A DNA stretch of 64,000 nucleotides, taken from positions 2,480,001 through 2,544,000 of the forward strand of contig NC_012963.1 of the NCBI RefSeq assembly GCF_000027005.1, given 5' to 3'. The DNA comes from Komagataella phaffii GS115. Taxonomy: Eukaryota; Ascomycota; Pichiomycetes; Pichiales; Pichiaceae. This document shows, in pieces, positions 2,691 to 27,044 of this stretch (position 1 is its first letter; the number at the start of each line of letters is the position of its first letter). The notes under the pieces are model-generated. The model saw only the letters and a list, made by a program, of their open reading frames with translations. It was not told the DNA's origin and did not search any database. The position numbers and the translations under genes were made by a program.

Positions 2691-3821
2691 TTAAGACTTC
2701 TTGGACTTTCTCTTACGAATAATTACCTCTCCCGTCTTGGAACGAGCCTTACGGACCTTCAAAGCCTCTTCCAGAGCAGCAGCTTGTGCTGCCTTGGACT
2801 CGGCACTCTTCTTCGTCTCTTGCGCAAATTTCTTGATACCATCAAACATACCTTCAGCCTCCTCACCTGGTTTCTTCACTCGTGGAACAATTTCTTGCAA
2901 CCCTGCAATCTTGCGGAAAACCTTGTTCCTTAGTAATGCACTCTGGACGAAAGAACAGGCAGCATTAGTTGCAAAATAGAGGACCACGCCGGAGGATAAG
3001 TTCATGGTGAAAGGAATAGAAAGCGTGGGGAGAACATATGTTAACAGTTTCTGAGTGCCGGGCGAAAAATTAGAAGCACCTGTTTCTCCGCCAAGCTTCA
3101 TAGAAGTCATAAAAGTAGCAGCAGAAATTAATTGCAATCCTAGGTATGGATCAGCAGCTGATAAGTCTGGGAACCAGTAAGCTCCTTGGGTGGGGAACCC
3201 ATCAACCGGCAGAAGAGCCATGTGACGAAGAGCAGTGAAAAATCCAATAGCAATGGGAAATTGTAGGAATGGGGCCATCATATATCTGTACTTGATTCCA
3301 TATTTGGCAGTAATTTGCTTTCTCATTAGAGCAGCCTTCTGACGTTCACCGACAGTCTGGGCATCTCTGATAACCTTCATACACTCGTCCATCTCTGGTT
3401 TGGCCTTTGCAGAACGAGCCATAGTGTCAGAACTCTTAACGAATAGTGGAAACATGACCACTCTGATGGCTATAGTAGTAGCTACAATGGTACCCCACCA
3501 TGGTAATCCCGAGTAGACATGGACGTATTCCAGGGTACGTTCTAGAACATCTGGAGGCCACCACCAGCTTTGAGCCATGCCCACAGAGTTCAAGTATCCC
3601 AGTTGATCATGCGTAAGCGTGGTCACTGTATCTGTGAAAGTGTTGGCAGCTTCAGGGAAAGACTGCAGCTTCGTAGAGATCTCATCAATTGGAGCAGAAC
3701 TGGATGAAGAATTAAACCTAGCACCCACAAGAGGAAAAGTAGCGCGCAGCGCAGGAACTTTGGGCGCTGAGTGAATCAGGGCAAAGGGTCTGGACCCAGA
3801 CTTCAGGATCCTAGGAAACAT
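2691..3821 (-). CDS. OXA1: Mitochondrial inner-membrane insertase Oxa1
   Basis: The product (376 residues) is a YidC/Oxa1/Alb3-family insertase that places mitochondrially encoded and conservatively sorted proteins in the inner membrane. The N-terminus MFPRILKSGSRPF and the next 35 residues are Arg/Ser-rich without acidic residues, a typical presequence. The conserved core follows: a GLPWW segment opening the first transmembrane helix, an Arg-containing helix (IAIRVVMFPLFV), a matrix loop, then further helices to about residue 305. The C-terminal 60 residues are highly basic (ending RKRKSKKS), as expected for the ribosome-binding tail. The frame extends 27 codons upstream, but only to a TTG codon and with acidic residues, so the ATG at 3821 is chosen. 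It is divergent from the neighbouring PET122 candidate, as OXA1 and PET122 are in S. cerevisiae. Confidence 0.93.
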   Translation of the reverse strand: MFPRILKSGSRPFALIHSAPKVPALRATFPLVGARFNSSSSSAPIDEISTKLQSFPEAANTFTDTVTTLTHDQLGYLNSVGMAQSWWWPPDVLERTLEYVHVYSGLPWWGTIVATTIAIRVVMFPLFVKSSDTMARSAKAKPEMDECMKVIRDAQTVGERQKAALMRKQITAKYGIKYRYMMAPFLQFPIAIGFFTALRHMALLPVDGFPTQGAYWFPDLSAADPYLGLQLISAATFMTSMKLGGETGASNFSPGTQKLLTYVLPTLSIPFTMNLSSGVVLYFATNAACSFVQSALLRNKVFRKIAGLQEIVPRVKKPGEEAEGMFDGIKKFAQETKKSAESKAAQAAALEEALKVRKARSKTGEVIIRKRKSKKS

Positions 3822-3988
3822 TTGCTCTAGTTGATGAAGTGAAAAGTCTTGGTAGATGATGTTGGTAGACGAGTGGAAAATGGTGTTGGGATCCAAGAAC
3901 AAACCATCTCACCTTACATTTCTCAAGGAAGGGAACTTGATCAAACGATCCCAGAATTACACCCTTTTCGGCGTCTGTCCCTCCTGTG

Positions 3989-5515
3989 ATGCTTAGACGA
4001 GTAGCCCGCTGCACTATGGGCGGTGGCCATTTGTCTAGCAGGTATTTTTTCAGGAGTTTGAACGTCCAGATGGGCACTCAATCAAGCATCGTGCATTTGA
4101 AACAATCGGCCCAAGACTACATCAATTTGTTTTCCTCGCCCAACAGCTCTGTTCTGCAACTTTCTACGGTCGACAGTTCCGGGATCAGCCAGCTGCTAGT
4201 GAATTTGCTGGTATTAGAGGAGTATGATTTGTCTGATCGGCTGTCCAAAGCGGTGTTTCAAAGTGATTTTTATCAGCTGGACAACGACTCGCTTTTATTA
4301 TTGATAAAGATCATTGAAAAATACGAAAGACCGTTGCAGCAGAAACTGGAATTGTTCAAGCATATTCTGTCCAAACTGTCAGAACAGTCAGGGGCTGATA
4401 TTGACGCGGAATTGAACGTCCAGCAGGAACTTTTGAACACAACTACAAGATTAATAGAGGAGGAAGAAGCCTTAGGCCTAGAACTAACAAACTTTCTGCT
4501 AGCTCTCCCTAGAACGTCATTGATATCCAGTGTTTTGTTGCACGCACTAACCATTCAAAACCATTATAGACACGCATTCATTTTGATTGATAACTGCATT
4601 CATGAGAATGTGCCCTTGAACCGATTTACATTGGACAACTATTGTTATCATGTAGCCCGTCAGGGGCTTTTGGATCCCCTCGTTTACATGATAAGATTAA
4701 TTGAAGGCACATCATATCTACGGATTAACTCCCAGCTAATAAGGCTGCTTTTGACCCAGGCTCTAGAGCACGGTAGAATCGATTTGGTGGAGAAGTGGTG
4801 GCTAAAATATATAGTCCGATCTCGAAGGTCTGTCTTCCTGGGCGAAAATGTGCTCAAGAACATTGTCTATCTGGCATCTGAATACGGAGCCAACAAGCTT
4901 ATCATACGGGTGAAAAGGTTTCTCCATTTACAAAATCCTGTCCTTCTAGCCTCGTACGATTGGAGAAGGTTATTAGGTATATCCCTCTTCGAGGCAGATA
5001 TGCTACGTTGTGGCACGACTAGTGCCAATTATCTCTTCTACAAGCTTGAACTCAACAATATGAACATCCGTGCAGTTGAACTTCCCAATCTGCAAACACA
5101 GTTAGCAAGCACAGATATCCTGGATGATTCCACAAAGATTGCCAACCTAATCTACAATTCCAAGAGAGAAGAAATATGTCGACCGTTACTACTGAGTCTC
5201 GTCATCGCACTAATAAACCAGCATAAAGGCGGTGCCGCGTTGGACTTGCTTGACCAGTGGTACGCACACTCCAAAGACGTTGAGAAAGACGAGGAAGTCT
5301 GTTTCTATCATCTCAGAGCACTCTTATCAGTTGGAGATAAGGATAGAGTTATGGAGTGTCTCGAAACACAGTTCAATAATGTTACACTAAGTCCTAGACT
5401 TTACTACTTGATCTCTGCCGAATTGGAAGGCTCTCCAGTTGAGTTTCATTTGCAGAGGTTGAAGGATCGAGCAGCCAAGGATTCCACTTGGGTACAGACG
5501 GCTTCCATAGGGTGA
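3989..5515 (+). CDS. PET122: Probable mitochondrial translational activator (PET122 by position)
   Basis: The 508-residue protein opens with MLRRVARCTMGGGHLSSRYFFR, an Arg-rich, acid-free mitochondrial presequence. The rest is almost entirely predicted helix with repeated Leu-rich helical pairs (PPR/TPR-like in style) and no catalytic motif. Sequence alone does not name it. The neighbourhood does: it is divergent from OXA1 and followed on the same strand by the YER152C-type aminotransferase, exactly the S. cerevisiae arrangement OXA1-PET122-YER152C. Pet122 helps translate COX3 mRNA on the inner membrane. The S. cerevisiae protein is, from memory, about half this length, so orthology would mean strong length change, as is common for these fast-evolving activators. 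Start: the ATG at 3989 directly follows an in-frame GTG. Confidence 0.6.
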   Translation: MLRRVARCTMGGGHLSSRYFFRSLNVQMGTQSSIVHLKQSAQDYINLFSSPNSSVLQLSTVDSSGISQLLVNLLVLEEYDLSDRLSKAVFQSDFYQLDNDSLLLLIKIIEKYERPLQQKLELFKHILSKLSEQSGADIDAELNVQQELLNTTTRLIEEEEALGLELTNFLLALPRTSLISSVLLHALTIQNHYRHAFILIDNCIHENVPLNRFTLDNYCYHVARQGLLDPLVYMIRLIEGTSYLRINSQLIRLLLTQALEHGRIDLVEKWWLKYIVRSRRSVFLGENVLKNIVYLASEYGANKLIIRVKRFLHLQNPVLLASYDWRRLLGISLFEADMLRCGTTSANYLFYKLELNNMNIRAVELPNLQTQLASTDILDDSTKIANLIYNSKREEICRPLLLSLVIALINQHKGGAALDLLDQWYAHSKDVEKDEEVCFYHLRALLSVGDKDRVMECLETQFNNVTLSPRLYYLISAELEGSPVEFHLQRLKDRAAKDSTWVQTASIG

Positions 5516-5645
5516 TCAGTGTGAAGTCTGCATAAGGACCCCGTCTAGTGACTTCACCATCTCCTTTCGCGACTGGCTGTCTCTTACCGACCTTTTTTGC
5601 CGGACAGAGCGTAAGTCTCCACTCTCATTATTTTCACTCCTATCA

Positions 5646-6965
5646 ATGAAAACTCCAATCAACTTTTTCCGTGGGCACCCAACATCTTCGCTATTGCCAT
5701 ATGGTGAGATTGCAGAGGCATCAGTTCGTGTCATGAGGAAGTTCCAAGAAAGACCTGATCTTTACGAGTTTGACGGGTCAGATAATAGAGGCCCTCTGGA
5801 GTATGGGAATGACTTTGGAAATGACGATATTCGAGAAATTATAGCCAAATGGAACGATTCATGGTTCAGAAAGTCATCATTTCCGTTCTCAGAAACTGAT
5901 GTAAATGTTATCAACATCACAGGCGGGGCATCATCTGGTGCCACTACTATTTTGAACCAATGCACCCACCCAAAGGTGACTAAACAGGTCTTCGTTGTGA
6001 CTCCTACGTATTTTCTCGTCAATAGTTTGCTCATTGATGCTGGACTTGGCGGTAGATTGACTGCAATTGAGGAAGATGATCAAGGGCAAATTGACTTGGA
6101 AGAGCTGGAACGTTTGCTGATTAAGTTCACTGATCCGGATGAAAAAACCACTATTAATCAAGACATCATGAGCGACAATGTCGAGGGTGCAACAGATCCT
6201 TCCCGTGCTCCCAGAAAGTTTTATCGTTTTGCCATGTATTTGATCCCCACGTTCAGTAATCCAAAGGGAGGAGTGTTAGACTATGAACATAGAGTGGCCC
6301 TAGTGGAACTGGCCAGAAAGTATGACCTGTTGCTGATATCTGATGACGTCTATGATTACTTGAGATATGATGGTAGTGAGCTTTTGCCTAGACTATCCAC
6401 TATCGATAGAGCTACTCGCACATCTCGATACGGGAATACAGTGGCCAATTGTACTTTCAGTAAACTTGTTGGGCCAGGTTTAAGAGTAGGTTGGCAGGAA
6501 ACCGCATCCCCACATCTGACGGAAGTATTATCACAGGGAGGTTTTGTGAAATCAGGAGGTGTTGCAGGACAAATGTCGTCTTTCCTGGTAGCTGATCTGA
6601 TTAGTACAGGAACAATAGACAGAATAATTCATCATCTCAATGAAGTTTACCAACTTCGAGCCAAAACTTTGAAACACCTGCTAGACACATATCTGCCCAA
6701 AGGTACAACATATACAGGAGGCAATGGAGGATATTTCATGTGGGTAACCCTTCCGGACAAGTACGACACCCGCTCAATTGTTCAAGATTTGAGTGCAAAT
6801 TACAATGTTTTACTTGCTAGTGGAGACAAATGTGAAGTAGAAGGTGATCCCAGACACTGGGGGCTTCATTCCGTTCGTTTATGCCTTAGTTATCTTCCAG
6901 AAGAGGAAATGACCGAGGGAGTGAAAATCTGGGGTAAAGTCTGTGAGGACCATCTTATAGGTTAA
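5646..6965 (+). CDS. PLP-dependent aminotransferase, YER152C-like
   Basis: The 439-residue protein is a fold-type I aminotransferase of the class I/II group close to Aro8/kynurenine aminotransferases. Recognisable parts are INFFRGHPTSSLLP at the N-terminus, NITGGASSGATTI in the cofactor-binding part, the substrate/PLP region PTFSNPKGGVLDYEHR, an ISDDVYDYLRY segment carrying the PLP-ring Asp and Tyr, and FSKLVGPGLRVGW carrying the Schiff-base Lys and the Arg after it. The substrate is not established for the S. cerevisiae relative YER152C either; 2-aminoadipate or aromatic amino acids are reasonable guesses. It lies 130 bp after the PET122 candidate on the same strand and 66 bp before SHU2. 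The first ATG is used. Confidence 0.85.
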   Translation: MKTPINFFRGHPTSSLLPYGEIAEASVRVMRKFQERPDLYEFDGSDNRGPLEYGNDFGNDDIREIIAKWNDSWFRKSSFPFSETDVNVINITGGASSGATTILNQCTHPKVTKQVFVVTPTYFLVNSLLIDAGLGGRLTAIEEDDQGQIDLEELERLLIKFTDPDEKTTINQDIMSDNVEGATDPSRAPRKFYRFAMYLIPTFSNPKGGVLDYEHRVALVELARKYDLLLISDDVYDYLRYDGSELLPRLSTIDRATRTSRYGNTVANCTFSKLVGPGLRVGWQETASPHLTEVLSQGGFVKSGGVAGQMSSFLVADLISTGTIDRIIHHLNEVYQLRAKTLKHLLDTYLPKGTTYTGGNGGYFMWVTLPDKYDTRSIVQDLSANYNVLLASGDKCEVEGDPRHWGLHSVRLCLSYLPEEEMTEGVKIWGKVCEDHLIG

Positions 6966-6968
6966 GTA

Positions 6969-6976
6969 TCACGTGA
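6969..6976. promoter_or_regulatory. TCACGTGA E-box upstream of SHU2
   Basis: A perfect 8-bp palindrome with a CACGTG core lies about 56 bp upstream of the SHU2 start codon. In yeasts such sites bind Cbf1 or other bHLH factors. Function is inferred from sequence and position only. Confidence 0.4.
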
Positions 6977-7031
6977 CCACTGTATAGTTCATTTTAACAC
7001 CCAAACCAACACTTTCTTGTGCGATTTATAG

Positions 7032-7520
7032 ATGGAGAAGGATGAGCAAGAAAAGGAGAGAGAGTTCAACCAAATAGCCAACCAATTGATAGAAGGCTTG
7101 TTCCGTTCGGGCCGTGGAAGTGAAATGGCTTCTATAAAGGTTGATGACGCCAAATCGGTTGCCCTGGCAGCTTTATACCCAAAAACCTTTTACAGAGGCC
7201 TTGAGTTGTTAGAGACGCGTTCGATGTACGAGATTCAGTACCAAAATGCCACATTCTTTGTTGTGAAGGATTCTCCAAAGGCAGGCAACAGTGGGGAGTG
7301 CTATTATAGGATTGAAAAGGACGGCTGTTTTTGTTCTTGTCCTACTTTTATTGAACTTTTGGAACAATCGAGTTCCAAATTATGTGAACATGTTCTAGCC
7401 TGGAAACTTTACGACGGGAACAAAGATTTTTTGGCCAATTATTCGGAGAACCTGATTCATGTAGAAAACCTAGAGGAAATGGAGGATTATCTGAAATGGT
7501 GTAAGCTATGTTTTCTCTGA
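7032..7520 (+). CDS. SHU2: Shu complex subunit Shu2 (SWIM zinc finger)
   Basis: The 162-residue protein carries a SWIM-type zinc motif near residues 99-120: Cys-Phe-Cys-Ser-Cys, then a 14-residue spacer, then Cys-Glu-His, followed by VLAWKL. This is the hallmark of the Shu2/SWS1 family, which with Rad51 paralogues promotes Rad51 filament formation in error-free repair and replication-fork tolerance. Length is close to the usual size of about 200-220 but somewhat short. Position supports the call: in S. cerevisiae SHU2 is in the RAD55-SED1-SHU2 cluster, and here a RAD55-like gene and the SED1-like GCW14 lie on the same chromosomal block. The next 1.8 kb downstream is empty, and an accessory region starts there. 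Confidence 0.8.
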   Translation: MEKDEQEKEREFNQIANQLIEGLFRSGRGSEMASIKVDDAKSVALAALYPKTFYRGLELLETRSMYEIQYQNATFFVVKDSPKAGNSGECYYRIEKDGCFCSCPTFIELLEQSSSKLCEHVLAWKLYDGNKDFLANYSENLIHVENLEEMEDYLKWCKLCFL

Positions 7521-9294
7521 GAGAGAAGGGGTGGGGTGACGGAATGCATGCTAGGGGTATTGGTAGGCAGATCCAGGGCGGTATGGTAGTTTCACATTTC
7601 CGAGTAAGTGCCACATTGAATTGCATTGGATGTTCAAGAGCGACACAGAGAGATGAACCGTTGCATGATGCATTGTATGTTAGTGCGCAATTACTGTACA
7701 TGCATAACGTCCCAGCTATCACCTTGAATAATGCAAAAACGTTATTACGTCTGAAAACTGCACGAAGTGAACGACTTCATCGATACATGCCTTTCGTTTT
7801 CCCTGACAAATTACCAAGGTGAAATGAAGCAACTGGTTTAGTTTTAAGCCTTGTGAGATTGCAAAAAGAATGCTTCTCTCAGATATATCTGGATATTAAC
7901 TTTTGAGGTGACCTTTGAAAATTGCCAAACGAAAAGCCATCCGACCATTTGAGTCTGTGAATCTCAACTAATGAGTTAAGTTGAGAATTTTTTGCTTGCC
8001 TTGCAAGGCCATGAGTGTTGAGCGAGCCAAAGTTCACCAAAGCTTCAAAGACTGACTAAAATCCTTTACGTTGTTTCTGGAGGTATAATTCATAAGTAAA
8101 ATTAATTAGACGTTACATACATACCTAGAAAATTGACTGGAGCTGAAGAAAGGTTTAGAGCTGTTAAGTTCAGCGGACCTTCATATTTAGTGGAAATTGA
8201 GGATAAGAATTTACGGTAACGGCAACAATATTGTTCACACTGACAATAATCTGCTGCAGTAAATGTGTAGATCGAGAGTAAGTGTAACTTAATGATCCTG
8301 TTGCCTGTAGTTGAATCAGTGATATTCCCTAGACCTAACAAATTCTAGATCATCTCAAACAAGCTACCTCCAAAGACAATAAATGATCCTGAGAATTGGA
8401 CCGATCAACGTAGATATTGTTGAACACTATTAAGTTTGTAGAATGCCATATTTTTTGGGTATAACCCAGCAAGATTTGGCACGATTCGCTGCGACCATAC
8501 CTAGCAGGAAGCACCGTTTTCCGTCCGATCAATCGTAGTTAAGCCGCCAAGAGACTGACCTAGTAGTGTGGTGGGAGACCATACGCGAAATTGCATTCTA
8601 TCTTCTCTCTGTCTATTATGATGGTGGAGACCTGATCCTTTAGTTGTGCTTTTACTGGACAGAGACACCATCTTGCATGCTGCTATCTAATACGAAGGGG
8701 GTTGTGTGCTCCCTTGGCCTGGAGATCCAGTGAAGGGTTTTGTTGCATGGGGTTACATGTTTCTGGTTCGAACAGAACGCTTGTTTTGAGTGTTTTATTG
8801 ATGGATACTTGTGCATGTACATTGGTCAACTACAGGCAGTCGATTCTGTAATGCCATATTGTGGTACTAACAAGAGAACTTGCTAACGTTTCTAGAAAAA
8901 AAATCATTCTTTTATACGACACATGAGCTGCGATTATCTAGCCATGATTGGTGACATTTTCTCGTTGTTTTCATGATGCACAAGGTGCCGATGCTGAATC
9001 CTGGATGAATCAGCTACAAAAGTACTATCATGCAACAATGAACCTTATACTAGATCTCTATGCATGGCTTTTGAACACCCAATGCACATCCAGCGTCTAG
9101 CGATTATTAGCATTGTAATAGTACCACATTACGCCTGCCTAAACAGATATCAGGGCTAATAGCGTCCGAAGTGACCAGAAGTTTACACCATAATTTCTAT
9201 GATCGAAGCTGTGCCTTGGATATAAAATTTAAGCTTCAGGATTCAGTACATTCGATGAAAAGAAAAGCATGAAACAAAAATAGAATTAACGAAC
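7521..9294. other. Gene-free spacer, start of accessory region
   Basis: There are 1.77 kb without a recognisable coding region, tRNA or repeat family. Frames are short and unlike any family. Small hairpins occur (8-bp arms at 7962-7969 and 7979-7986), and a tRNA-T-arm-like hairpin at 8761-8777 has no partner arms. The relic at 9295 follows. Confidence 0.5.
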
Positions 9295-9675
9295 TTAAAG
9301 GAACAGTGAAAAAAGGACCCTCCCTCTATAAATGAAGAGCAAGTTAAGCAATGAAACTACTCCAAAAAAAGCTGACCATCTCAGGGTATTTGCTTCTCCA
9401 GTTTGCAAAGAAACCGTTGAAGGGGGTCGGGAAACGGTGTCAGATGTACTTTGGGCCTCATTGTCGGATAAGGCAATGCTTTCGGCTACAGCTGCCAACT
9501 CAGAACCCGATGACTCCACTACTGTTTGAAGTGTACTCAATTCAACTGTTGGTACATGGGTGTCGACCGAAGCATACATTGGCAATGTCATAACGGCGAT
9601 TGTACTTCTATCAGCATCGGTGGTGAAAGCGGTGAACGTGCTCGTCCTTGTATATGTGGGCTCAAGGGTGGTGAG
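9295..9675 (-). pseudogene. Relic of flocculin C-terminus (inverted)
   Basis: The minus strand encodes a piece that closely matches the stalk and GPI-anchor end of the flocculin at 14685-16343. Upstream it has EPTYTRTSTFTAFTTDADRS, matching the WTGTF...TTDADGS repeat; then VELSTLQTVVESSGSE, PPSTVSLQTGEANTLRWSAF and a final hydrophobic stretch. An ATG at 9591 opens a 98-codon frame. The N-terminal PA14 domain is absent and an in-frame TAG lies a little upstream. The original stop is lost and the frame runs on (FIYRGRV...). An internal deletion of about 14 codons is seen against the other copy. It is a decayed, truncated copy in opposite orientation to the main gene. Whether the 98-codon frame is expressed is unknown. 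Confidence 0.75.
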
Positions 9676-11327: not shown

Positions 11328-12572
11328 TCATAACTTTGTTTTAATTTTATCCAATGGTAACGCTACGTAATAACTTTGAAGAGCCCGCTCCAAAGCTGGT
11401 CCAAGTTTGGACCATTCCAGAATTCTTAGGCTTTTATCGACTATTAGAGGTTTCCGCACCTTATAAGCCCTGATACGTTGGGCCAACTCTTCAATACAAT
11501 CGTTTTCCCGAGATGGCTTAGAACCCTTGCTCATGGTACTTGTGGACGATGGAACTATATCTTTGGACCAGAATCGCACTAAATTTGATCTTAGACAGCT
11601 TCTTTCTCTTCTTTTCGCCTGGATATCTTGGATTAGATGATTTTCCGTTAAAAACTCTATAATCCTAATGACTTCAACACTGGTGATGTAGTATTCAAAT
11701 CTAACAGAAGTCTCAATTTCTTTATCACTACCACAGCTCAAATTTTCTTCAAAGTCGTGTCCTGCTAGCTCGCTGTACTTGTGTTCTTCACTTGAAGAGC
11801 TTGTAGGGACGGTTTGCGCTACTTCTGAGTTGTGTTCTTTGATTGGACACAATAAACACGAAAACTCCAGCACATCAACGTTAGGGTCAACTGCAATATT
11901 GGTTTGTGGATTTTCTTGAACAGAATCAACTATTGAAAAGGCAGCCTCAATTTTATTATACTGACGTCTTTTCTCTACTCGAACAATCCTTCTACTTTCC
12001 TCAAGTTCTTTCTCATTCCATTTAGGTAAACAAATGCCTTCATAGTTGACGTTGAGCAACTCCAAGCAGACATTGACGTACTCAGTTCCAGGAACTAGTT
12101 GGTTCTTAGGCGGCTTTATTTTTCCTCCAGAGCAAAAGCCACGAACCAGCGGGAAGGCCGAGTATTCAAGGAACGCTGGTACCGGCATATTCATGCCATG
12201 AAAGGAATTGAGATTTTCAGTGGTATTCTGCTGTGTTATTTGGGACTGTCGCCGTTTACGGTCCATGACCATCTTCAACGAAGTTGGAGGTGCTACCATG
12301 GTAGGAAGTTTTAGCAAAGGAAACGCTGGGAATAGGTCTTGAAAAGTTTGTCCAAAAGATGCACCCGTCATTGAGTCCATAAAGAACGATTCTGATTTTG
12401 GGATATTAATATTAACAAGTGAAGGGCTGTCAACACCTGTGACCGAGTGAACTGAACTGGTTTGAAAAGTATTGGAAAAGGTAAGTGCAGAAGAGTCAGA
12501 GTTAAAAATGTTCTCCGGAGGCATGGCAAACAACAAATCCAGTTGTTGTTCTTGCTCGAGTGGTTGAAACAT
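11328..12572 (-). CDS. Medusa-like (DUF7082) regulator, shortened paralogue
   Basis: The 414-residue protein is a paralogue of the split gene at 21521-23112; both share QLDLL..PENIFNSxSS near the N-terminus and two conserved C-terminal blocks. The first block is LPKWNEKELEESRRIVRVEKR. The second runs from YYITSVEVIRIIEF through RSCLRSNLVRFWS to RRIRAYK-like and RILEWSKLGPALERALQSYY segments. This pattern (TSV..I..LE.L, K.R.R.NL..F, RP...K.V...W..L..AL) matches my memory of the fungal Medusa/MedA regulator domain, known in Aspergillus for control of conidiation and adherence. No zinc cluster or bZIP is present. It lacks about 100 N-terminal residues of the paralogue, and decayed homologous codons lie in its 5' leader. 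Coding appears intact. A flocculin gene lies 2.1 kb away, divergently. Confidence 0.65.
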   Translation of the reverse strand: MFQPLEQEQQLDLLFAMPPENIFNSDSSALTFSNTFQTSSVHSVTGVDSPSLVNINIPKSESFFMDSMTGASFGQTFQDLFPAFPLLKLPTMVAPPTSLKMVMDRKRRQSQITQQNTTENLNSFHGMNMPVPAFLEYSAFPLVRGFCSGGKIKPPKNQLVPGTEYVNVCLELLNVNYEGICLPKWNEKELEESRRIVRVEKRRQYNKIEAAFSIVDSVQENPQTNIAVDPNVDVLEFSCLLCPIKEHNSEVAQTVPTSSSSEEHKYSELAGHDFEENLSCGSDKEIETSVRFEYYITSVEVIRIIEFLTENHLIQDIQAKRRERSCLRSNLVRFWSKDIVPSSTSTMSKGSKPSRENDCIEELAQRIRAYKVRKPLIVDKSLRILEWSKLGPALERALQSYYVALPLDKIKTKL

Positions 12573-12614: not shown

Positions 12615-12637
12615 CGTTTTAATGTGGTTCCTTAGTA

Positions 12638-12645
12638 TATTTATA
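12638..12645 (-). promoter_or_regulatory. TATA box of Medusa-like paralogue
   Basis: TATAAATA on the minus strand, 66-73 bp upstream of the ATG at 12572. Position and sequence fit a core promoter. Confidence 0.5.
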
Positions 12646-14684
12646 CCTCTGTTATAGGAGACTCATACTTATGATGCATGAGTACACATTTGCTAGCTAT
12701 TACGTTGATATTTGCAGCTCAATTGAAACAGTTGTATCGACGAAATGATTAAAAAGAAAGAGCACATTGCATGATCAATCGCAGAAAATATTTGGGTGTT
12801 TTTTTGCGAGAGGCCTTTGAGATGAACAATTATATACTGCTGGATGAATGCTGGACACACCTATGTGAGGCTTAAAACCATCATGGTGATTAAAATGATA
12901 GCTTTCGTCTAACGAGGGCAATGACTTCACCAATAACAATTGTGTCAATCTTTGTGTCAAGAATGTCAGTTGACATTTTTGGACTGTTGCTATACTATTA
13001 TTGGCTTATTGCTTTACATTTTGTTGGCTGCGCCCAAAATGGAACGGTGGTTTCAAATTGGTAACATTTCATACTCAAAGAATCAATTTGCAGTCTTTTT
13101 TGAAGACTCGCAGATCAAGCTGCATGCAAGTTTGAAACAGGGACTAGCAGAAAGTTATACGATTTTCGAATTGAATCCAACCTGTCTGAAAGAAAATTCG
13201 TATCAGATGCATTATGTGACCACGAGTCAGTGGCTTAGTTGTTAAACCCAAGAGTGCTGATGAGCATGACTGTTCCCGAAAAATTTGATATATCTGGCAA
13301 AAGCGTTTCTATTTTGATGTTCAAGTAACGCGTCCTCCAGTCATATCCTTGAAGCAGATTAAAACGTTCCTTTTTACTTTTTTAAAGTTATCGTTGATTA
13401 TTCTTGTTTGCACAGCTTGCCAACTTCACATTAAAGGAGCTTGAAACAGATATTAACTCAAGAATACTGCAGAAATATTTTCTACTCTGCACTTTTACCA
13501 TTTTGTTAACTTTTCTGTCAACACCCAAACAAATGCACCGCTCACCTGCTTTATTTTAGAAGGCTTGCATCCAAATTGCTTGAGAAGAAACGGTAGTTTC
13601 ACAATGTGGCAGTTTGATTACCTCTTGAGTCCAATTAAATACCTAAAACGATGCATGCAATTTCGCAATAGTTCGTTGCAACCTAGATAGATAACTACAA
13701 TTTATGAGGCCCTATCGTGAAATAGCAACGTAGAATAATTTCCTGGCAGAGTAGGGTGTGGGGTCAGTAGAAGTAATATCCAGAAGCTGATGCAGGTTAT
13801 TGATATTACCACAAGATTCTAGCTTCAAATGCACAGTTCGGATTGGTGATCCGAAGATGCTAAAAAAAAGACATCAAACTCCAAACCGTATCGCTTTTTA
13901 CGGCGTATATTGTTGCACGAAAGCGAACTATAATCATGCAGAAAACATGCGGACATGACGTAATGTATGCGTTTAGGGAAAGGTACTGCGTATTTCAAAC
14001 GCATACTTAGATCGTGCCCAGCAACCCACATAATTTTTTCTTCAAGGTCTGGACATACTGGTTGTGTCAAAATAGGGCAACAAAATGGCCAAGCTGGGAA
14101 ACGGGATTTGGTGGAACTTTATTATTCTTTCTACGATCCAAGCATTATGTTGTGGAACAAAGCGAATACTCTTATTAGCTGGTAATTGAGCGAGTTGAAA
14201 AAATCAAGTCTATTGGAGGGTATGGTCAGAGTACTGATAGAGATCCCTGTTAAGATAATCGATCTTTTTCAAATATCCAATTTCATTCCATCTTGCCATC
14301 GGGTCTTGGCTTCTTACATCAATAATTAAAACTACTTACTCTATTAGTGCCAAAAATGGTAAACCGTATTCAAATTGCTGCAAGCATATGCTTAAAAGGA
14401 TCGCGTTGCGAGCTTCTTTTGAGATTCGCAAGCTTGATTTTATGCTCTTGTGGGAAGAAAAGCAACCCACTGAATTCCAGATTTGTTGTGTTTTCATGCA
14501 TGGACGACATACTTTGAGTAATACCGTTACTGAGATTTTACCGAATTCGCATTGCGTTGAGGCGTGAAGTTTCTTAATGCTGTGCCATATGGTTAAGTTG
14601 CGTTTCAAGATGGTCCACAAGTATTTTTGTATTTAAGCAGTGTCAATTCAAGCCTAACTGCTCATAAAAACTACACGGTTTGCT

Positions 14685-16100
14685 ATGTTTGAGAAGAGTA
14701 AATTTGTGGTTTCGTTTCTGCTTTTACTGCAGCTATTTTGTGTCCTTGGTGTACATGGACAAGAAAGTGGTAACGGTACCACTAGTGACACTGCCTACGC
14801 ATGCGACATCGGTGCAACACCTTTTGACGGATTCAATGCTACTATTTATCAGTACCAGGCAAGTGATGACAATTCAATACAGGACCCGGTTTTTATGAGC
14901 ACTGGGTACTTGCAACGTAACCAGTTGCATAGTACAACTGGAGTGACTAATCCGGGGTTCAACATCTTCACTGCAGGCGTTGCCACCACAACACTTTATG
15001 GGATACCAAACGTCAACTACCAAAATATGCTTTTAGAATTGAAAGGCTATTTCAGAGCTGACGCCTCTGGAAATTATGGACTATCACTAAGGAACATCGA
15101 TGATAGTGCGATTCTTTTCTTTGGGAGGGAGACTGCGTTTGAATGTTGCAATGAAAATTTGATTCCCTTGGACGAAGCCCCAACTGATTACTCACTTTTT
15201 ACCATTAAAGAAGGGGAAGCTTCAACAAACCCCGACTCTTATACGTACACTCAATACTTGGAGGCTGGGAGATACTATCCCGTAAGAACTTTCTTTGCCA
15301 ACATAAGAACGCGTGCCGTGTTCAACTTTACGATGACACTGCCAGACGGGAGTGAACTAACAGATTTTCAAAACTACATTTTTCAATTTGGAGCTCTTAA
15401 CCAACAACAATGCCAAGCAGAAATAGTTACCAGGGAAAATTACACAACCACCACCGAACCATGGACTGGTACCTTTGAAGCCACGACCACGGTGATTCCA
15501 AGTGGCACTGAGCCAGGTACCGTGATTGTCCAGACTCCTTATTCTACTATCGACTCCACATCTACTTGGACCGGTACTTTCACCACTTTCACCACCGATG
15601 CTGATGGAAGCACCATCGCCGTTGTGCCATCGTCGACTATTGATGATCACTTTGCGTCGACTGAAACTGTTTTGACAGACACTGCTATTTCAACTACTGT
15701 TATTACCGTGACCAGTTGTGGTACCAGTAAGTGTACCAAGACTACAGCACTAACAGGGGTGACTCAGCGAACTCTCACAATCGATGATAGAACTACTGTC
15801 GTGACGACTTACTGTCCTTTGCCAACTGACGTTGCCACTATAAAAACAGCAAGTGTTAGCGGAAGTGAGGTTGTGCAAACAATCTACACTGCGAAACACA
15901 GCCAGGCCGTTTCTTATGTTCATCCATCAACTGTTACAATCACAAGAGAGGTATGTGATGCCCAAACTTGCACGCAGGCTACTATTGTGACTGGAGAAAT
16001 TCTGCAAACTACTGTTGTGGACTCTGGTTCTACAACTGTTGTTCCAAAGTATGTTCCGGTGGAGACGCATGAACCAACATTTGAATTGAGTACTCTTTAA
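14685..16100 (+). CDS. PA14-domain flocculin, ends at premature TAA
   Basis: The 471-codon frame encodes a Flo1/Flo5-type adhesin. A signal peptide covers residues 1-25. A PA14 lectin-like domain (about 40-240) contains the calcium-site Asp pair in [11 protein letters not shown] (Asp139-Asp140), the adjacent Cys pair CCNEN at 154-155, and [19 protein letters not shown]. Next comes a short Ser/Thr-rich stalk with Flo-type repeats ([11 protein letters not shown] at about 254, [14 protein letters not shown]) and [13 protein letters not shown] units. The stop TAA at 16098-16100 falls in ELSTL-stop-TVLESSG. The relic copy at 9295 has a Gln (CAA) there, so this is a single C-to-T change in that comparison. 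The frame stays open afterwards to a GPI signal. As read here the protein would be secreted but not anchored. Such proteins bind cell-wall sugars in flocculation or adhesion. Confidence 0.8.
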
Positions 16101-16343
16101 ACGGTCTTGGAGTCATCAGGCTCTGACTGGGCAGCTGCTGCAACTGGAACTTCCCAAGCCTCCCACCAAACTGCAGGTGTAGCCGAAAGTATTCACGTGT
16201 CCCAGAATGAGGCCCACAGTACATCTGTCACCGTTTCTCAACCCCCTTCAACGGTTTCTTTGCAAATTGGAGAAGCAAATACCCTGAAATGGTCAGCTTT
16301 CTTTGGAGTAGTAGTTCCGCTGCTCAACGTACTCTTCGTTTAA
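16101..16343 (+). pseudogene. Orphaned C-terminal part of flocculin with GPI signal
   Basis: The same reading frame continues for 80 codons after the TAA at 16098-16100. It is Ser/Thr-rich and ends in TLKWSAFFGVVVPLLNVLFV, a classical hydrophobic GPI-attachment tail, before TAA. The inverted relic (9295-9675) aligns through the same stretch, confirming it was once joined to the upstream part. Translation would need readthrough; the stop context (TAA ACG) is not a known efficient readthrough signal. Confidence 0.75.
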
Positions 16344-16674
16344 AAGCCCTTTTTTCTTTTCTTTTCATTTAACTTTATTTAGTTCTAAGCGTTTCTTTTT
16401 TTATTGTATTTCATGGGTCCTGGTAGCCCGCTTATTGTTCATTTACAGTCAACATCAGGCCTTTCGACAACTGGGACTAATGTAAATCTCTAATCTGCCA
16501 CTTTAGGCGATTCGCCATAGGTGCTCGCTGGAACAAGCCTAGATGCCACTACCACCCGGGGGGCCCTTACTGGGCGAGCAATGACCTTCCAACAACTTTC
16601 CCAACATCTCGCGATAACGACTCCTTTTCTACCCTTTTCCAGAGCAAAATTTATCAATTCTACCATAGGCGACC
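16344..16674. other. Intergenic spacer before UBP3
   Basis: 330 bp with no gene. It should hold the 3' end of the flocculin transcript (T-rich stretch near 16350-16410) and the UBP3 promoter. This is the right boundary of the accessory region. Confidence 0.4.
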
Positions 16675-18450
16675 ATGACCACTGGTACCCAGTCATCACC
16701 TCAACTGACCAGTGATGATCTTCACAAAATTGATGAGTATTTTCGACGACATTTGAAACTCCAAATAGCGGCTGACAATGACTCGGAACATGATCAACTG
16801 CCTTTTTTTGTTGGAGTCACAAGACAGGATTTCCACCATCTTAAACAGCTGTCACTGAGGAACAGACGGCTTCACTCTGACCCTACATATACATTGAAAG
16901 TACAAAGAGAACTATCCTCCATTAAAAAAGTCGAAGACAAGCCTGCAGCATACAAGACGTGGGCTTCGTTGTTGGTAAAACCCTCCACGAATTATCACCA
17001 GAATAAATTAACCAAACAGGACTCACCCTCTAACCACATTAAACAGTCAACCTCATTGCCAGCTTCGTCATCTCAATTGTCCCCTCAATTCCAACCTCTA
17101 GGTGCTGTGCTACTAAGATACATGTACGACAAGGATTACCAAAAACCTCCTGATGTAAAACTTCTTCCTCATGGCCTAATAAACAGGGGTAACATCTGCT
17201 ACATGAACTCGGTTCTACAATTGTTCATCTTTTGCAAGCCACTGTTCCGTGTGCTCCGTTGCATACGAGAAAAGACGATAGCTCATGTTTCTGGTACGTC
17301 TGACACACCTATTTTGGATGCATTGACTCTGTTGTTGGAACGATTTCAACACAAAGAGTCACACGAGTCAGCATCTGTGGATGATTTCGGGGAACCACTA
17401 TCACAAGAGTCATTTTACACATCTATAATATCACTGCCCAAGTTCTCTCATTTACGATGGGGGCAACAGGAAGATGCTGAAGAGTTCATGGGTTATGTAT
17501 TGGACGAATTGCACGAAGAGTTCATTTCCCAGATGACCAAACTCACAGACACTGAAAAGAGTCAGCTTCTTGCCAGCGTGAATAACGTTGAGAGTAAGAA
17601 ACAGATCTCTGAGGCGTTGAATCTGATCCAAAAAAAGCCAGGCTCGTCTCCAAAAAGCAAATATGATACCGAGGATAAGCACGACGATGACGGGTGGTGC
17701 GAGGTTGGATCCAACAATAAATTATCTGCCAAGCGTACAGTTGAAGTGAAACCGTCCCCGATCACCGAGATATTCGGAGGACAATTTAGGTCAGTGCTGA
17801 ACGTTCCTAGACAGAAAAACGGCAGATCCATAACGTTAGACCCATTTTTGCATGTTCAGTTGGATATCTCTGAACCCAATGTTTCTTCTGTGGAAGATGC
17901 ATTCACATATCTGTCTCAGATCGAGGTTATACCCTACAAATCAAGCAACGGCAATCTGGTCCAAGCTACGAAGCAAAATATGATCGATAAATTACCAGAG
18001 GTGCTAATTATTCATCTGAAAAGGTTTTCCTACGTGAGACAGGAGAGTTCATCCGACGTAGGCACTCCAGTTCCACAGTCAAGTTCACCATCTCCATCAC
18101 CTTCTCCATCTGGCTCCACCCAGAACGGATTTCACAGCAAAAACAACGATGCTGAGATGGGATGTATTCAGAAGATTCAGAAGATAATAAAGTTTGGCCA
18201 TGCACTGACCATTCCAGAGGCTTGCTTGTCTCGTGGCGAGACTAACAACGAGTACCAGCTCCAGGGTGTGATATACCACCACGGGAACAGCACAGAGGGA
18301 GGACACTACACGATTGACGTCAAGAACGACCGTGATTCATGGCTTCGCATAGACGACACGAACATAGTCCCACTCACTCCACAGCAGGTCGTAGGCGCTT
18401 CTACCAACGACGGGAAGGATGCGTATATACTAGTCTACCAAAAGAAATAG
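16675..18450 (+). CDS. UBP3: Ubiquitin carboxyl-terminal hydrolase Ubp3 (USP10 type)
   Basis: A 591-residue USP-family deubiquitinase. The catalytic Cys box GLINRGNICYMNSVLQ carries Cys175. The QQEDAEEF box follows at about 265. The His box YQLQGVIYHHG...EGGHYTIDV carries His544, followed by WLRIDDTNI with the third catalytic residue and the final DAYILVYQKK. A Ser/Pro-rich insert (about 465-485) interrupts the domain. Ubp3/USP10, with cofactor Bre5, removes ubiquitin from Sec23 and other clients and acts in ribophagy. The N-terminal region is shorter than in S. cerevisiae (912 residues from memory). Position between the YER152C/SHU2 side and the SPI1-like GCW14 matches YER151C. Confidence 0.9.
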   Translation: MTTGTQSSPQLTSDDLHKIDEYFRRHLKLQIAADNDSEHDQLPFFVGVTRQDFHHLKQLSLRNRRLHSDPTYTLKVQRELSSIKKVEDKPAAYKTWASLLVKPSTNYHQNKLTKQDSPSNHIKQSTSLPASSSQLSPQFQPLGAVLLRYMYDKDYQKPPDVKLLPHGLINRGNICYMNSVLQLFIFCKPLFRVLRCIREKTIAHVSGTSDTPILDALTLLLERFQHKESHESASVDDFGEPLSQESFYTSIISLPKFSHLRWGQQEDAEEFMGYVLDELHEEFISQMTKLTDTEKSQLLASVNNVESKKQISEALNLIQKKPGSSPKSKYDTEDKHDDDGWCEVGSNNKLSAKRTVEVKPSPITEIFGGQFRSVLNVPRQKNGRSITLDPFLHVQLDISEPNVSSVEDAFTYLSQIEVIPYKSSNGNLVQATKQNMIDKLPEVLIIHLKRFSYVRQESSSDVGTPVPQSSSPSPSPSPSGSTQNGFHSKNNDAEMGCIQKIQKIIKFGHALTIPEACLSRGETNNEYQLQGVIYHHGNSTEGGHYTIDVKNDRDSWLRIDDTNIVPLTPQQVVGASTNDGKDAYILVYQKK

Positions 18451-18655
18451 AATCAGTCACGAACAAAAGTCGTAGATCATGAGTGCAACAAAACACCTTA
18501 CGAAGAAATCAAAAGAAAAAAAAATATTATTAAGATACTATTAAGTTGAAGAATATCCTTATTGGATTAAAGTCCAGATGACGTTTGTAGCATAAACATC
18601 AGACTGAAACGAATACACAAAGAAAATATCTAACAATCTAAACGACTGGAGATAC

Positions 18656-19063
18656 TTACAAGAAGTAAGCAGCGGCAGCAGCAACACCGGCCAAACCAGC
18701 AACACCAGCCTTAGCAGCACCACCGTGAGAGATGGTAGAAACAGAGTGGGTTGGAGCTGGGGTAGAGGTAGATGGCACGTGAGTGGTGGTGGTGTGTGGG
18801 GTGGAGTGGGTGGTTGGTGGAACATCAGTGGTGATCTTGGTGGTCTTGGAGATGGTGCAAGGACAGTCAGTGATGGTCAAAGTGGTTGGGGCGGTCACAG
18901 TGATGGTCTTGTTCTTGTGAACGAAGGTGGTTGGCTCTGGGCAGTAAGTGGTGAGCTCGGTGACAACATCGGTGATGGTAGTCTCGTAAGTGTAAGTTAC
19001 GTTAGAGTAAGCAGCCAGAGCGGAACCAGCAAGAGCCAAAGTAGCGACGATAGAGAATTGCAT
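18656..19063 (-). CDS. GCW14: GPI-anchored cell-wall protein Gcw14 (SED1/SPI1-like)
   Basis: The 135-residue protein has a signal peptide ([17 protein letters not shown]), a Thr-rich middle with Cys in [13 protein letters not shown] and [10 protein letters not shown], a TTH-rich stretch, and a C-terminal GPI signal ([13 protein letters not shown] then a hydrophobic Ala-rich tail). This is the Sed1/Spi1 family of small structural wall glycoproteins. The upstream DNA matches the known strong constitutive GCW14 promoter of Komagataella phaffii. Codon use is strongly biased to preferred codons, as in very highly expressed genes. In gene order it takes the place of both SPI1 (next to UBP3) and SED1 (next to RAD55) of S. 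cerevisiae. Confidence 0.93.
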
Positions 19064-19885
19064 TTTTGTTGTTGAGTGAAGCGAGTGACGGAACGGTAAA
19101 ATGTAAGTAACAAAAGAAAAAGAGAACCAGGGGGGGGAGGAGAGTATGTATTTATACCGTACGGCACCAGGCGAAAAGCTATAAACAAACCTTTTTCGCG
19201 GTATATTTGTTTATATTTCCTATTTTAAACTCAAAATCTGCCCTAATCTGGACTTTTCATGCAAAGTTATGCACCTGAGGCAGGAATGAAGCAGGCTCGA
19301 CGACGAAAAGGCTGGAATGGGTAACTATGGATCGATTGATTTGTCTGTTGAAATCTTGATTTGGCACTCGTTTAAATTAACATTCTGCATCATGGTGAAT
19401 TGCGGTCACAGGTACTGGTTTTTCCTGAAGCTCTAGGCGGTGTTACTGTTCCCACAACTTAAAACCTAAAAGAGGTGGGTGCTTCTTTGCGTGGGTGACC
19501 AAAAATAAAACCGACTGCCTAGTGGCATTGATACCTTTTTTTGGGTGTTGTCCTGGAAACCACTGAACGTATCTGCGAGATACAAAAGTATTTTTAGATA
19601 AGTGGCAAATGCAAAAAATCTGATTGGTCAGTTAATGATTGATGAACGACTTTAAGGTTAAAAAGCAAAATAGTGACTGCTGCCATGTGCCTGTATAGCA
19701 CATGAACTGATTATTCTGTTCCCACGCTACGATGAAAACGCCTTCTCTGCCGAAAGATTAAAGCTGCGCGGGAAAAAAAAATTAACTTTACGGGGCGAGC
19801 ACGGTTCCCCGAAACAAAAGATGGTTGGCTTTCACCCAGCGAGCTCACTGGATCCCAGTTAAAAATAGTTAGGTGGGTTCACCTG
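19064..19885 (-). promoter_or_regulatory. GCW14 promoter
   Basis: The minus-strand sequence from about 19885 (CAGGTGAACCCACCTAACTA) down to the start codon is what I recognise as the widely used strong P-GCW14 region of K. phaffii. TATAAATA lies at 19149-19156, about 90 bp upstream of the ATG. The leader just before the ATG is A-rich on the coding strand (ACTCAACAACAAAA), typical of highly translated genes. The poly-T/A run at 19889-19910 separates it from the RAD55-like gene. Confidence 0.85.
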
Positions 19886-19920
19886 AATAAAAAAAAAAAA
19901 AAGAAAAAAAATGGCTGGAC

Positions 19921-20931
19921 TCACCTTGATTGTGAACTCCCTTCCAAATCGGGCTGTGTTGTGGCTTCGGCTTCACTACCCGCTTTCCTCTCTGTTGATG
20001 TCTCTGGATCCATGTTTCTTCCTTTTGTGGAAACCTCAATGATGCCCTCCCTAGATCTGCTGAAAACAACAACTTTTGTCGGATGGGGTGTTTTGGGATT
20101 CCGCGGGTTGGCTTGAACAGCGATATGGGGCAAAACTTGTAGCCCAGCAGACTCGTTCGTCCTACACCAATCTTTGAAGATTACGAACCGATCAGCTATT
20201 TGATGCAGCCAGACGCCAGTAGAGCCCAACATTGGTTGCAATATCGTTTGCGTGACATTAGACTTCCCCACCTTTCGGTTGGTTGTGTTCAAGGGACCGC
20301 AAAGAAGACTGACACTGTTGTGTGTGCGATTGTAAGATGAGACCATGAGCATCAATTCTTGGAGGAAATGCAGTCTTCGATCGGCCGCAGAGTACGGATT
20401 TCTAGGCAGTCTCACCTTGGAGATTCCAAGTTTTTTCTCGGCTTCCAGGTTGTTATTGTGGTCGGTGACAACTGCTCTTCTCTTGGTAAAAGTCTTTGTC
20501 AACTTGTGAAACGAGTAGTTGACCAGCGACGCCAGGTCTTCTAGAACTATCAAGCCGTACTTTTGATCTTGACCCCTAGGCTGTTTCTTGAGCTTGTTGG
20601 AGAAGAGATACGTCAACTCCGCCAGGGATGAGATGGTAATAACTGCGATTTGGTCCAGCATTGGACCGTGAAACCTGTCTAATTGTACCAGTTTCCGGAT
20701 GGGAAACAAGCTGCCCATTTGAATCCACAAAACACGTTCTCCCGCTTCTAGTACTTCCAGCACCACGTTGAGAATCAGATCCAGAGCTTCAGATCCAGCG
20801 CCTGGCACGAAAGAGACTTCCAAGATGCTGTTTCGACGGATTCCCCCATCCAAGATCGAATCAAGTGTGGGCAGACCCGTGGATAAGGAAGGAGCATTCT
20901 GCAACACTGTTTGTAACGGCTGGATCAGCAT
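19921..20931 (-). CDS. RAD55: Rad51 paralogue, RAD55-like, degenerate Walker A
   Basis: The 336-residue protein has a RecA-fold core: LSTGLPTLDSILDGGIRR, a P-loop position reading FVPGAGSEAL (residues 41-50), RVLWIQMGSLFPI, then YGLIVLEDLASLV as Walker B strand, and a C-terminal WLHQIADRFVIFKDW. The segments line up in order with Rad55 as I remember it. The Walker A Lys-Thr is missing (SEA instead of GKT), so ATP binding should be lost or altered. Rad55-Rad57 stabilises Rad51 filaments and works with the Shu complex. Psy3, an ATP-site-free Shu subunit, is the alternative, but the position next to the SED1-like GCW14 matches RAD55 (YDR076W). The start is the ATG at 20931; an in-frame GTG lies two codons upstream. 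Confidence 0.65.
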   Translation of the reverse strand: MLIQPLQTVLQNAPSLSTGLPTLDSILDGGIRRNSILEVSFVPGAGSEALDLILNVVLEVLEAGERVLWIQMGSLFPIRKLVQLDRFHGPMLDQIAVITISSLAELTYLFSNKLKKQPRGQDQKYGLIVLEDLASLVNYSFHKLTKTFTKRRAVVTDHNNNLEAEKKLGISKVRLPRNPYSAADRRLHFLQELMLMVSSYNRTHNSVSLLCGPLNTTNRKVGKSNVTQTILQPMLGSTGVWLHQIADRFVIFKDWCRTNESAGLQVLPHIAVQANPRNPKTPHPTKVVVFSRSREGIIEVSTKGRNMDPETSTERKAGSEAEATTQPDLEGSSQSR

Positions 20932-26981: not shown

Positions 26982-27044
26982 ATAGTCAAATATTAATCTA
27001 TTTCACCTGTTCAAACTTTACTTAATGTACAAATGTGGTAGTTA

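What the first reader, a model, noticed from the sequence alone, without database searches (positions are those of the whole stretch)
2691..20931. An unduplicated ancestral block joins two S. cerevisiae segments
Read from right to left the order is RAD55-like, GCW14 (Sed1/Spi1 family), UBP3, SHU2, YER152C-like, PET122 candidate, OXA1. From memory, S. cerevisiae has RAD55-SED1-SHU2 on chromosome IV and SPI1-UBP3-YER152C-PET122-OXA1 on chromosome V. SED1 and SPI1 are paralogues, and every orientation agrees. This window therefore looks like the single pre-duplication block from which both segments came by gene loss. It gives independent support for naming the RAD55, SHU2 and PET122 candidates, and makes GCW14 the unduplicated counterpart of SED1 and SPI1.
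Basis: partly seen in the sequence, partly recalled or inferred. Interest (0 to 1): 0.75.

Follow-up and report, generated by a model that had tools for sequence, protein, structure and literature searches.

The report
Unduplicated ancestral yeast gene block
A stretch of a Komagataella (Pichia pastoris-type) yeast chromosome keeps in one row seven genes that in baker's yeast are split between two chromosomes after its ancient genome doubling; this is expected for such a yeast, but it helps to name fast-evolving genes, one of which, the DNA-repair gene RAD55, appears to have lost the usual ATP-binding residues.

Summary
In detail: seven ORFs at 2691-20931 lie in the stated order and strands (OXA1, PET122 candidate, YER152C-like aminotransferase, SHU2, UBP3, GCW14, RAD55). 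Two further genes and a 5S rRNA gene separate SHU2 from UBP3. The host is a Komagataella.

Neither stated refutation occurred. The 19921 protein's best solved-structure match is yeast Rad55; Rad57 lies elsewhere in the genome. The 7032 protein has the Shu2 SWIM signature and is the top, though weak, hit of a Shu2 profile. PET122 rests on position: its Pfam score is below cut-off and no larger than chance matches of decoys.

A pre-duplication yeast agrees in part: Ashbya AGR138W is SED1, AGR140C is SHU2. Other outgroup orders were not available.

GCW14 as the unduplicated SPI1/SED1 counterpart is already in print as PpSPI1.

New lead: Rad55 lacks the Walker A lysine and Ser/Thr in 3 of 3 Komagataella-type sequences, while 17 of 17 other aligned Rad55s keep [K/R][S/T]. 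Komagataella Rad57 keeps its motif. In S. cerevisiae it is Rad55's hydrolysis that matters.

The parts
2691..3821 (-). OXA1 (mitochondrial inner-membrane insertase)
   Evidence: Pfam 60KD_IMP 81.4 bits; PDB OXA1L E 8e-39 over residues 52-335
3989..5515 (+). PET122 candidate, 508 aa, divergent from OXA1
   Evidence: Position and orientation. Pfam PET122 12.1 bits, E 0.12, below the 22.3 cut-off; an implausible Tautomerase_2 hit scores higher, 18.3 bits. Of 4 decoys (1 reversed, 3 shuffled) none hit PET122, but 2 hit unrelated families at 12.8 and 12.2 bits
5646..6965 (+). YER152C-like PLP-dependent aminotransferase
   Evidence: Pfam Aminotran_1_2 67.5 bits; PDB aminotransferases, best E 8e-28; ortholog level by position only
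7032..7520 (+). SHU2, SWIM zinc-finger subunit of the Shu complex, 162 aa
   Evidence: CxC-X14-CxHxxA; Pfam SWIM 18.9 bits, cut-off 19.6; top of 607 ORFs for a Shu2 profile built without Komagataella, 12.5 bits, E 0.0035, best single domain only 8.1 bits, E 0.075; hhalign 82.5%, P 1e-5, against 1.9% for a control
8487..8604 (+). 5S rRNA gene lying inside the block
   Evidence: Rfam RF00001 43.4 bits (gathering 38), model positions 1-120 of 120
11328..12572 (-). DUF7082 protein gene interrupting the block
   Evidence: Pfam DUF7082 53.7 bits; paralogue at 21521-23112
14685..16100 (+). GLEYA/PA14 adhesin-like gene interrupting the block
   Evidence: Pfam GLEYA 73.3 bits, PA14 44.3, Flocculin_t3 41.9
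16675..18450 (+). UBP3 (ubiquitin-specific protease)
   Evidence: Pfam UCH 150.9 bits; 78 PDB sequences matched at E<=0.001, 60 shown, all named as ubiquitin- or Ubl-specific hydrolases; assignment to UBP3 among USPs by position and orientation only
18656..19063 (-). GCW14 = PpSPI1, single counterpart of SED1 and SPI1
   Evidence: 135 aa as listed for GCW14; N21, N51 and G114 as described for PpSpi1; one match in its own genome at E<=10, itself
19921..20931 (-). RAD55 with a degenerate Walker A motif
   Evidence: Best PDB match yeast Rad55 (9q2c_A) E 6e-7, next 0.033; Rad55 profile 52.5 bits against 27.5 for the genome's Rad51-type gene and 7.1 for its Rad57; hhalign 97.5%; PGAGSE where the others have PG[IV]G[KR][ST]

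Best explanation
The segment is an inherited gene block that was already present in the common ancestor of Komagataella and the Saccharomycetaceae. In the Saccharomyces lineage the block came to be present twice at the whole-genome duplication. Reciprocal gene loss then left RAD55, SED1 and SHU2 on one copy and SPI1, UBP3, YER152C, PET122 and OXA1 on the other, with only SED1/SPI1 kept in both. Komagataella never duplicated and so keeps one row, with two genes and a 5S gene between SHU2 and UBP3 and different neighbours on both sides. Shown here: order and strands in the window, one GCW14-type gene at the search's sensitivity, identities of OXA1, RAD55, SHU2 and GCW14. Inferred: the time of duplication, the loss pattern, and the ortholog-level names UBP3, YER152C and PET122.
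For: Order and strands. Family matches. Rad55 and Shu2 profile tests built without Komagataella sequences, with negative controls. Rad57 (E 1e-47 to PDB Rad57) and a Rad51-type gene found elsewhere in the genome. One GCW14-type gene, equal to PpSPI1; SED1 and SPI1 reported as WGD paralogues and P. pastoris as non-WGD without a paralogue (PMC10653784, passages). Ashbya AGR138W=SED1 (PMC8618306, table row) and AGR140C=SHU2. RAD55 and SHU2 two tags apart in S. mikatae and S. uvarum.
Against: PET122 is not established by sequence, so at the sequence level the block is six named genes, two of them to superfamily only, and one syntenic candidate. The Shu2 match is weak by itself: Shu2 chains are in the PDB but are not found with the Komagataella sequences; the profile comparison does not put the two CxH pairs in register; the low-confidence Shu2 model matched nothing with confidence, best E 0.2. 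Two genes and a 5S gene break the row. Whether a better RAD55 or SHU2 lies elsewhere in the genome could not be tested: the nine genome requests with P0050 or P0032 did not complete. Kluyveromyces, Lachancea and Ogataea orders were not examined.
Confidence: 0.92

Rival explanations
1. A refinement that does not exclude the best explanation: the two S. cerevisiae segments descend from two different parental species (the duplication was a hybridisation), so the Komagataella row resembles each parent's own copy rather than a block literally doubled inside one lineage.
For: The start of the abstract of PMC5891031, seen in the listing, counts baker's yeast among allopolyploidy events; the rest is recalled.
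Against: It makes the same prediction for a non-WGD yeast; nothing in this window separates the two.
Confidence: 0.4
2. The row is kept by selection because RAD55 and SHU2 act together, rather than by inheritance with slow rearrangement.
For: Rad55 and Shu2 chains occur in the same solved structure, 9q2c; Rad55 interacts with the Shu-complex subunit Csm2, which the complex needs to reach Rad51 (PMC8472222, passages).
Against: The other five genes have unrelated roles. Several other rows in and beside the window look conserved too (yeast locations recalled), so retention is not special to this block.
Confidence: 0.05
3. The names are wrong and the resemblance is coincidence: 19921 is another RecA-fold protein and 7032 another SWIM protein.
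For: Pfam alone does not name either protein; the Shu2 profile score is low (12.5 bits); the Rad55 model's 50 listed structure matches are RAD51/RadA-type entries without a Rad55 entry among them.
Against: Rad55 is the best solved-structure sequence hit by more than four orders of magnitude in E-value; profile comparisons have clean negative controls; seven of seven strands agree.
Confidence: 0.02

Closest known systems
Double conserved synteny blocks of pre-WGD yeasts (Ashbya gossypii, Kluyveromyces waltii, reconstructed ancestor)
   Same: One row in the non-duplicated species interleaves genes of two S. cerevisiae segments, with one retained pair (SED1/SPI1); Ashbya has SED1 (AGR138W) and SHU2 (AGR140C) in the same order and orientation.
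   Different: Komagataella branches outside the Saccharomycetaceae (recalled), so the row is older than those reference genomes show; it carries two extra genes and a 5S gene between SHU2 and UBP3.
PpSPI1 (PAS_Chr1-4_0586), mBio 2023, PMC10653784
   Same: Same protein as GCW14 by N21, N51 and G114; described as without paralogue in non-WGD P. pastoris, counterpart of ScSpi1 with a fragment shared with ScSed1.
   Different: The name GCW14 does not occur in its main text; in the passages seen, the gene neighbourhood is not used.
Saccharomyces cerevisiae Rad55
   Same: RecA-core paralogue, N-terminal part clearly homologous.
   Different: Walker A lysine and Ser/Thr replaced by Ser and Glu/Asp in 3 of 3 Komagataella-type sequences.

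Membership tests
Double conserved synteny block of a non-WGD yeast | Genes of two S. cerevisiae segments interleaved in one row with matching strands | tested here: met
   7 of 7 strands agree; the S. cerevisiae YER names and order are recalled, RAD55/SHU2/SED1 names seen
Double conserved synteny block of a non-WGD yeast | Host has no second copy of the block | tested here: inconclusive
   One GCW14-type match in its genome; the Rad51-family search found two other genes, Rad51-type and Rad57, but not the window's Rad55 either; genome queries with P0050 and P0032 did not complete
Double conserved synteny block of a non-WGD yeast | Same order in other outgroups | tested here: inconclusive
   Ashbya SED1 and SHU2 tags agree; other outgroups not available
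Rad55 | RecA-core protein closer to Rad55 than to Rad51 or Rad57 | tested here: met
Rad55 | Walker A GxxGxGK[S/T] | tested here: not met
   Window PGAGSE; 3 of 3 Komagataella-type sequences lack Lys and Ser/Thr, 17 of 17 other aligned Rad55s have [KR][ST]. Walker A is a RecA-core feature and not what separates Rad55 from its paralogues
Rad55 | Heterodimer with Rad57 | not testable with these tools
   A Rad57 gene exists at G000:C1:47350
Shu2/SWS1 | SWIM signature CxC...CxHxxA | tested here: met
   C101-x-C103, C118-x-H120-x-x-A123; the signature is in 26 of 26 aligned rows, with Gly for the last Ala in 1
Shu2/SWS1 | Profile similarity to known Shu2 proteins | tested here: met
   E 0.0035, top of 607 ORFs, best single domain E 0.075; hhalign P 1e-5, 82.5%, residues 8-127; PDB searches from the Komagataella side negative
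SED1/SPI1 | Small GPI wall protein with the conserved Thr-rich fragment | tested here: met
   Equality with PpSpi1 by three named sites; 49.1% identity to ScSpi1 and the 41-residue fragment are the paper's findings
PET122 | Pfam PF05476 above its cut-off | tested here: not met
   12.1 bits against 22.3; the whole-genome search with the family found nothing, and nothing rang in its controls either
OXA1 | 60KD_IMP domain, closest to mitochondrial OXA1 | tested here: met
UBP3/USP10 | UCH domain | tested here: met
UBP3/USP10 | Closer to Ubp3 than to other yeast USPs | not tested
YER152C | Closer to YER152C than to other yeast aminotransferases | not tested
   Superfamily only

The most novel reading that the evidence does not exclude
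Komagataella Rad55 is a natural pseudo-ATPase: with the Walker A lysine and Ser/Thr gone it can no longer bind or hydrolyse ATP in the usual way, and the Rad55-Rad57 mediator in this genus works without the Rad55 hydrolysis that in S. cerevisiae releases the complex from Rad51 filaments, perhaps with that task moved to Rad57, whose Walker A is intact.
Probability: 0.55. Interest if true: 0.5.

Novelty: new member of a known kind. Interest (0 to 1): 0.33.

Why it matters
The row gives position-based support for naming genes too diverged for ordinary annotation: in the entries returned here RAD55 is a 'hypothetical protein' in K. kurtzmanii and SHU2 carries only a locus tag in K. pastoris. It also implies that this gene order predates the split of Komagataella from the Saccharomycetaceae. 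The most useful by-product is a Rad55 without a normal P-loop, which offers a natural test of what Rad55 ATP hydrolysis is for.

Tried and rejected
Structure prediction of SHU2 gave a poor model (pLDDT 60.8); its best PDB match had E 0.2 and no Shu2 chain was among the 50 listed. I treat that as uninformative, not as support. Structure prediction of RAD55 (pLDDT 59.3, pTM 0.63) matched RAD51-paralogue entries (best 8gja, RAD51C-XRCC3, E 6e-12); no Rad55 entry was among the 50 listed, so it supports the fold and not the name. The PET122 family search of the whole genome found nothing, and nothing in its 14 control genomes, so it says nothing. PDB searches with SHU2 and the PET122 candidate found no family member. 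Decoys of the PET122 candidate: 0 of 4 hit PET122, but 2 of 4 hit unrelated families at 12.8 and 12.2 bits, as high as the PET122 score itself; I therefore dropped any sequence claim for PET122.

Papers. Name-string searches found 1 and 0 papers; SED1+SPI1+WGD/GCW14 1, of which I saw passages (PMC8144909: Sed1 a paralogue of Spi1); GCW14+SED1+pastoris 1 (PMC7446130, passages); SED1+SPI1+paralog/ohnolog 11 (PMC10653784, passages); Komagataella synteny 85 papers, 20 listed, one searched for six gene names without a hit (PMC2675101); Rad55 Walker A evolution 33 papers, 15 listed, one seen in passages (PMC8472222); RAD55 with Pichia/Komagataella, any two of three terms, 1,071 papers, 12 listed, none of the 12 with RAD55; RAD55 and pastoris together 2 papers, and in neither do the RAD55 passages concern Komagataella; Ashbya tags 1 (PMC8618306, one table row).

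I considered an intron in the right-hand DUF7082 gene and thought it unlikely: the parts that match its paralogue end and begin at about the same base in two frames.

Rows left out: of the 48 hits, 2 are Komagataella-type, 17 went into the Rad55 alignment, 12 near-duplicates or fragments and 17 distant proteins did not. Of the 43 other hits, 24 went into the Shu2 alignment and 19 did not.

Changed on checking: residues between the SWIM cysteines are 14, not 12; the decoys' chance matches are now told; confidence in the best explanation lowered from 0.93 to 0.92 for that and for the unanswered genome queries.
Full report
What was checked. The seven ORFs named in the finding exist at the given coordinates and strands. 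The host is a Komagataella: the SHU2 candidate is 84% identical to a K. pastoris protein, the RAD55 candidate 98% to a K. kurtzmanii one, and the window lies at 2.48-2.54 Mb of contig 1 in a 9.22 Mb, four-contig genome. K. phaffii is the likely species, by inference only.

Identities. OXA1: Pfam 60KD_IMP 81.4 bits and OXA1L in the PDB at E 8e-39. RAD55: the best of all solved structures by sequence is yeast Rad55 (9q2c_A), E 6e-7, the next hit being at 0.033. A Rad55 profile made from 17 non-Komagataella sequences scores the window ORF at 52.5 bits, a Rad51-type gene of the same genome at 27.5 and its Rad57 at 7.1, among 607 ORFs of the window and five fetched loci. Rad57 itself was found elsewhere (PDB Rad57 E 1e-47). 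Profile comparison gives 97.5% for Rad55 and 0.2% for a Shu2 control. The predicted model matches RAD51-paralogue structures but does not pick out Rad55.

SHU2: the protein has CxC-X14-CxHxxA; all 26 aligned rows have the signature, one with Gly for the last Ala. Pfam SWIM gives 18.9 bits, just under the 19.6 cut-off, and matches 15 of 26 rows at E<=1, the best E-value being the window's 0.0011. A Shu2 profile made from 24 non-Komagataella sequences ranks the window ORF first of 607, at 12.5 bits, E 0.0035, though its best single domain reaches only E 0.075; the second ORF is at E 0.6. Profile comparison gives 82.5%, P 1e-5, against 1.9% for a Rad55 control; that alignment matches the CxC but not the CxH pair, because the other Shu2s carry 51-68 residues between them. 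Against it: Shu2 structures exist but are not found from the Komagataella sequences, and the predicted model is too poor to use.

GCW14: the ORF has 135 residues, as listed for GCW14 (PMC7446130, passages). It has N-glycosylation sites at N21 and N51 and Gly at 114, as described for PpSpi1, PAS_Chr1-4_0586 (PMC10653784, passages). That paper reports 49.1% identity to ScSpi1, a fragment present once in PpSpi1 and ScSpi1 and twice in ScSed1, ScSed1 as the WGD paralogue of ScSpi1, and no paralogue in P. pastoris, most likely because it is a non-WGD species. My own-genome search found one match at E<=10, itself. The GPI deletion-library paper lists GCW14 as hypothetical with no hits found.

PET122: only 12.1 bits with Pfam PET122, E 0.12 over 24,736 families (cut-off 22.3); a Tautomerase_2 match that makes no sense scores higher. 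One reversed and three shuffled forms gave no PET122 match (0 of 4), but two of them matched unrelated families at 12.8 and 12.2 bits, so a score of this size is chance level for this protein; that the predicted family is the one that scored is suggestive at most. The protein is twice the length of S. cerevisiae Pet122 (recalled, 254 aa). UBP3 and the aminotransferase are secure only as a ubiquitin-specific protease and an aminotransferase of the Aminotran_1_2 family.

Order. Read right to left, all seven strands equal the W/C letters of the S. cerevisiae names (YER names recalled). RAD55 and SHU2 are two locus tags apart in S. mikatae and S. uvarum. In Ashbya, SED1 is AGR138W (PMC8618306, table row) and SHU2 is AGR140C, the same order and orientation with one gene number between; that AGR139C is UBP3 is my recollection. 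Beyond the block the neighbours change: left of OXA1 come a LigB-type dioxygenase and snR67, right of RAD55 a second DUF7082 gene, a tRNA-Gly and a ribosomal S5 gene; none of these is a neighbour of the S. cerevisiae segments as I recall them.

How ordinary is it. Other rows that look conserved sit beside it. The window holds S5 (RPS2), NAB2, an ABC1 kinase (COQ8) and a DEAH-type helicase (PRP43), then an importin (KAP114), a Plus-3 protein (RTF1), a Glu-tRNA synthetase (GUS1) and BRR6 (Pfam families; the yeast gene names in brackets and their places near YGL119-123 and YGL241-247 are recalled). So long-lived local order is probably common in this genome. What singles out the present row is that it interleaves two S. 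cerevisiae segments with one retained pair.

The by-product. The Rad55 P-loop reads PGAGSE in the window and PGAGSD in K. kurtzmanii and in an unnamed 172-residue fragment that is 90% identical to the window's protein, against PG[IV]G[KR][ST] in all 17 others aligned (16 Lys, 1 Arg). The Walker B Asp-Gly is Glu-Asp in two and Asp-Asp in one of the three. Komagataella Rad57 keeps GGSSCGKS. In S. cerevisiae rad55-K49R is radiation-sensitive, though less than the deletion, and the mutant complex leaves filaments about three times more slowly, while rad57-K131R behaves like wild type (PMC8472222, passages). The loss is present in separate records, K. kurtzmanii among them, so a sequencing slip is unlikely. 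Whether it is limited to Komagataella could not be tested. I found nothing on it in the searches (15 of 33 papers listed, one opened; 12 of 1,071 listed; 2 of 2 listed, RAD55 passages seen in both).

Verdict. Observation confirmed; interpretation supported, PET122 excepted at the sequence level. It is an instance of a well-known kind, with one published conclusion (GCW14/PpSPI1) and one new lead (Rad55 Walker A).

Noticed in passing
window 20931-19921 (-), residues 43-48; P0002, P0003: Komagataella-type Rad55 lacks the Walker A Lys and Ser/Thr (PGAGSE/PGAGSD), and the Walker B Asp is Glu in two of three; Rad57 of the same genome keeps its Walker A.
   Followed up: partly
window 7032-7520: Komagataella Shu2 is 162 aa with 14 residues between CxC and CxH, while the 24 other aligned rows are 201-298 aa with 51-68 residues there.
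   Followed up: partly
window 11328-12572 and 21521-23112: Two DUF7082 paralogues (43-50% identical) lie on either side of the GLEYA-UBP3-GCW14-RAD55 part; the right one is split over two frames, so it is either a broken gene or an assembly slip.
   Followed up: partly
window 8487-8604: A full-length 5S rRNA gene stands alone between SHU2 and the DUF7082 gene.
   Followed up: no
window 53283-53885 and 55553-56602: An N6-adenine methyltransferase-family gene (EFM5-like) and a 3-beta-HSD gene (ERG26-like) lie close together; from memory these two flank CEN7 in S. cerevisiae, so the row may be kept here without a centromere; no centromere was looked for.
   Followed up: no
window 26190-36082 and 39824-50070: Two further rows look conserved with S. 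cerevisiae chromosome VII (RPS2-NAB2-COQ8-PRP43 and KAP114-RTF1-GUS1-BRR6; yeast names and locations recalled).
   Followed up: no
L004 and L005 (20 kb left of the window): By reading the translations only: a TRA1-like giant ORF next to a GEP4-like gene, and a HEL2-like gene next to a PEX10-like RING gene, pairs that from memory are neighbours in S. cerevisiae too.
   Followed up: no
window 14685-16100: A GLEYA/PA14 adhesin-like gene with a flocculin repeat lies inside the block.
   Followed up: no
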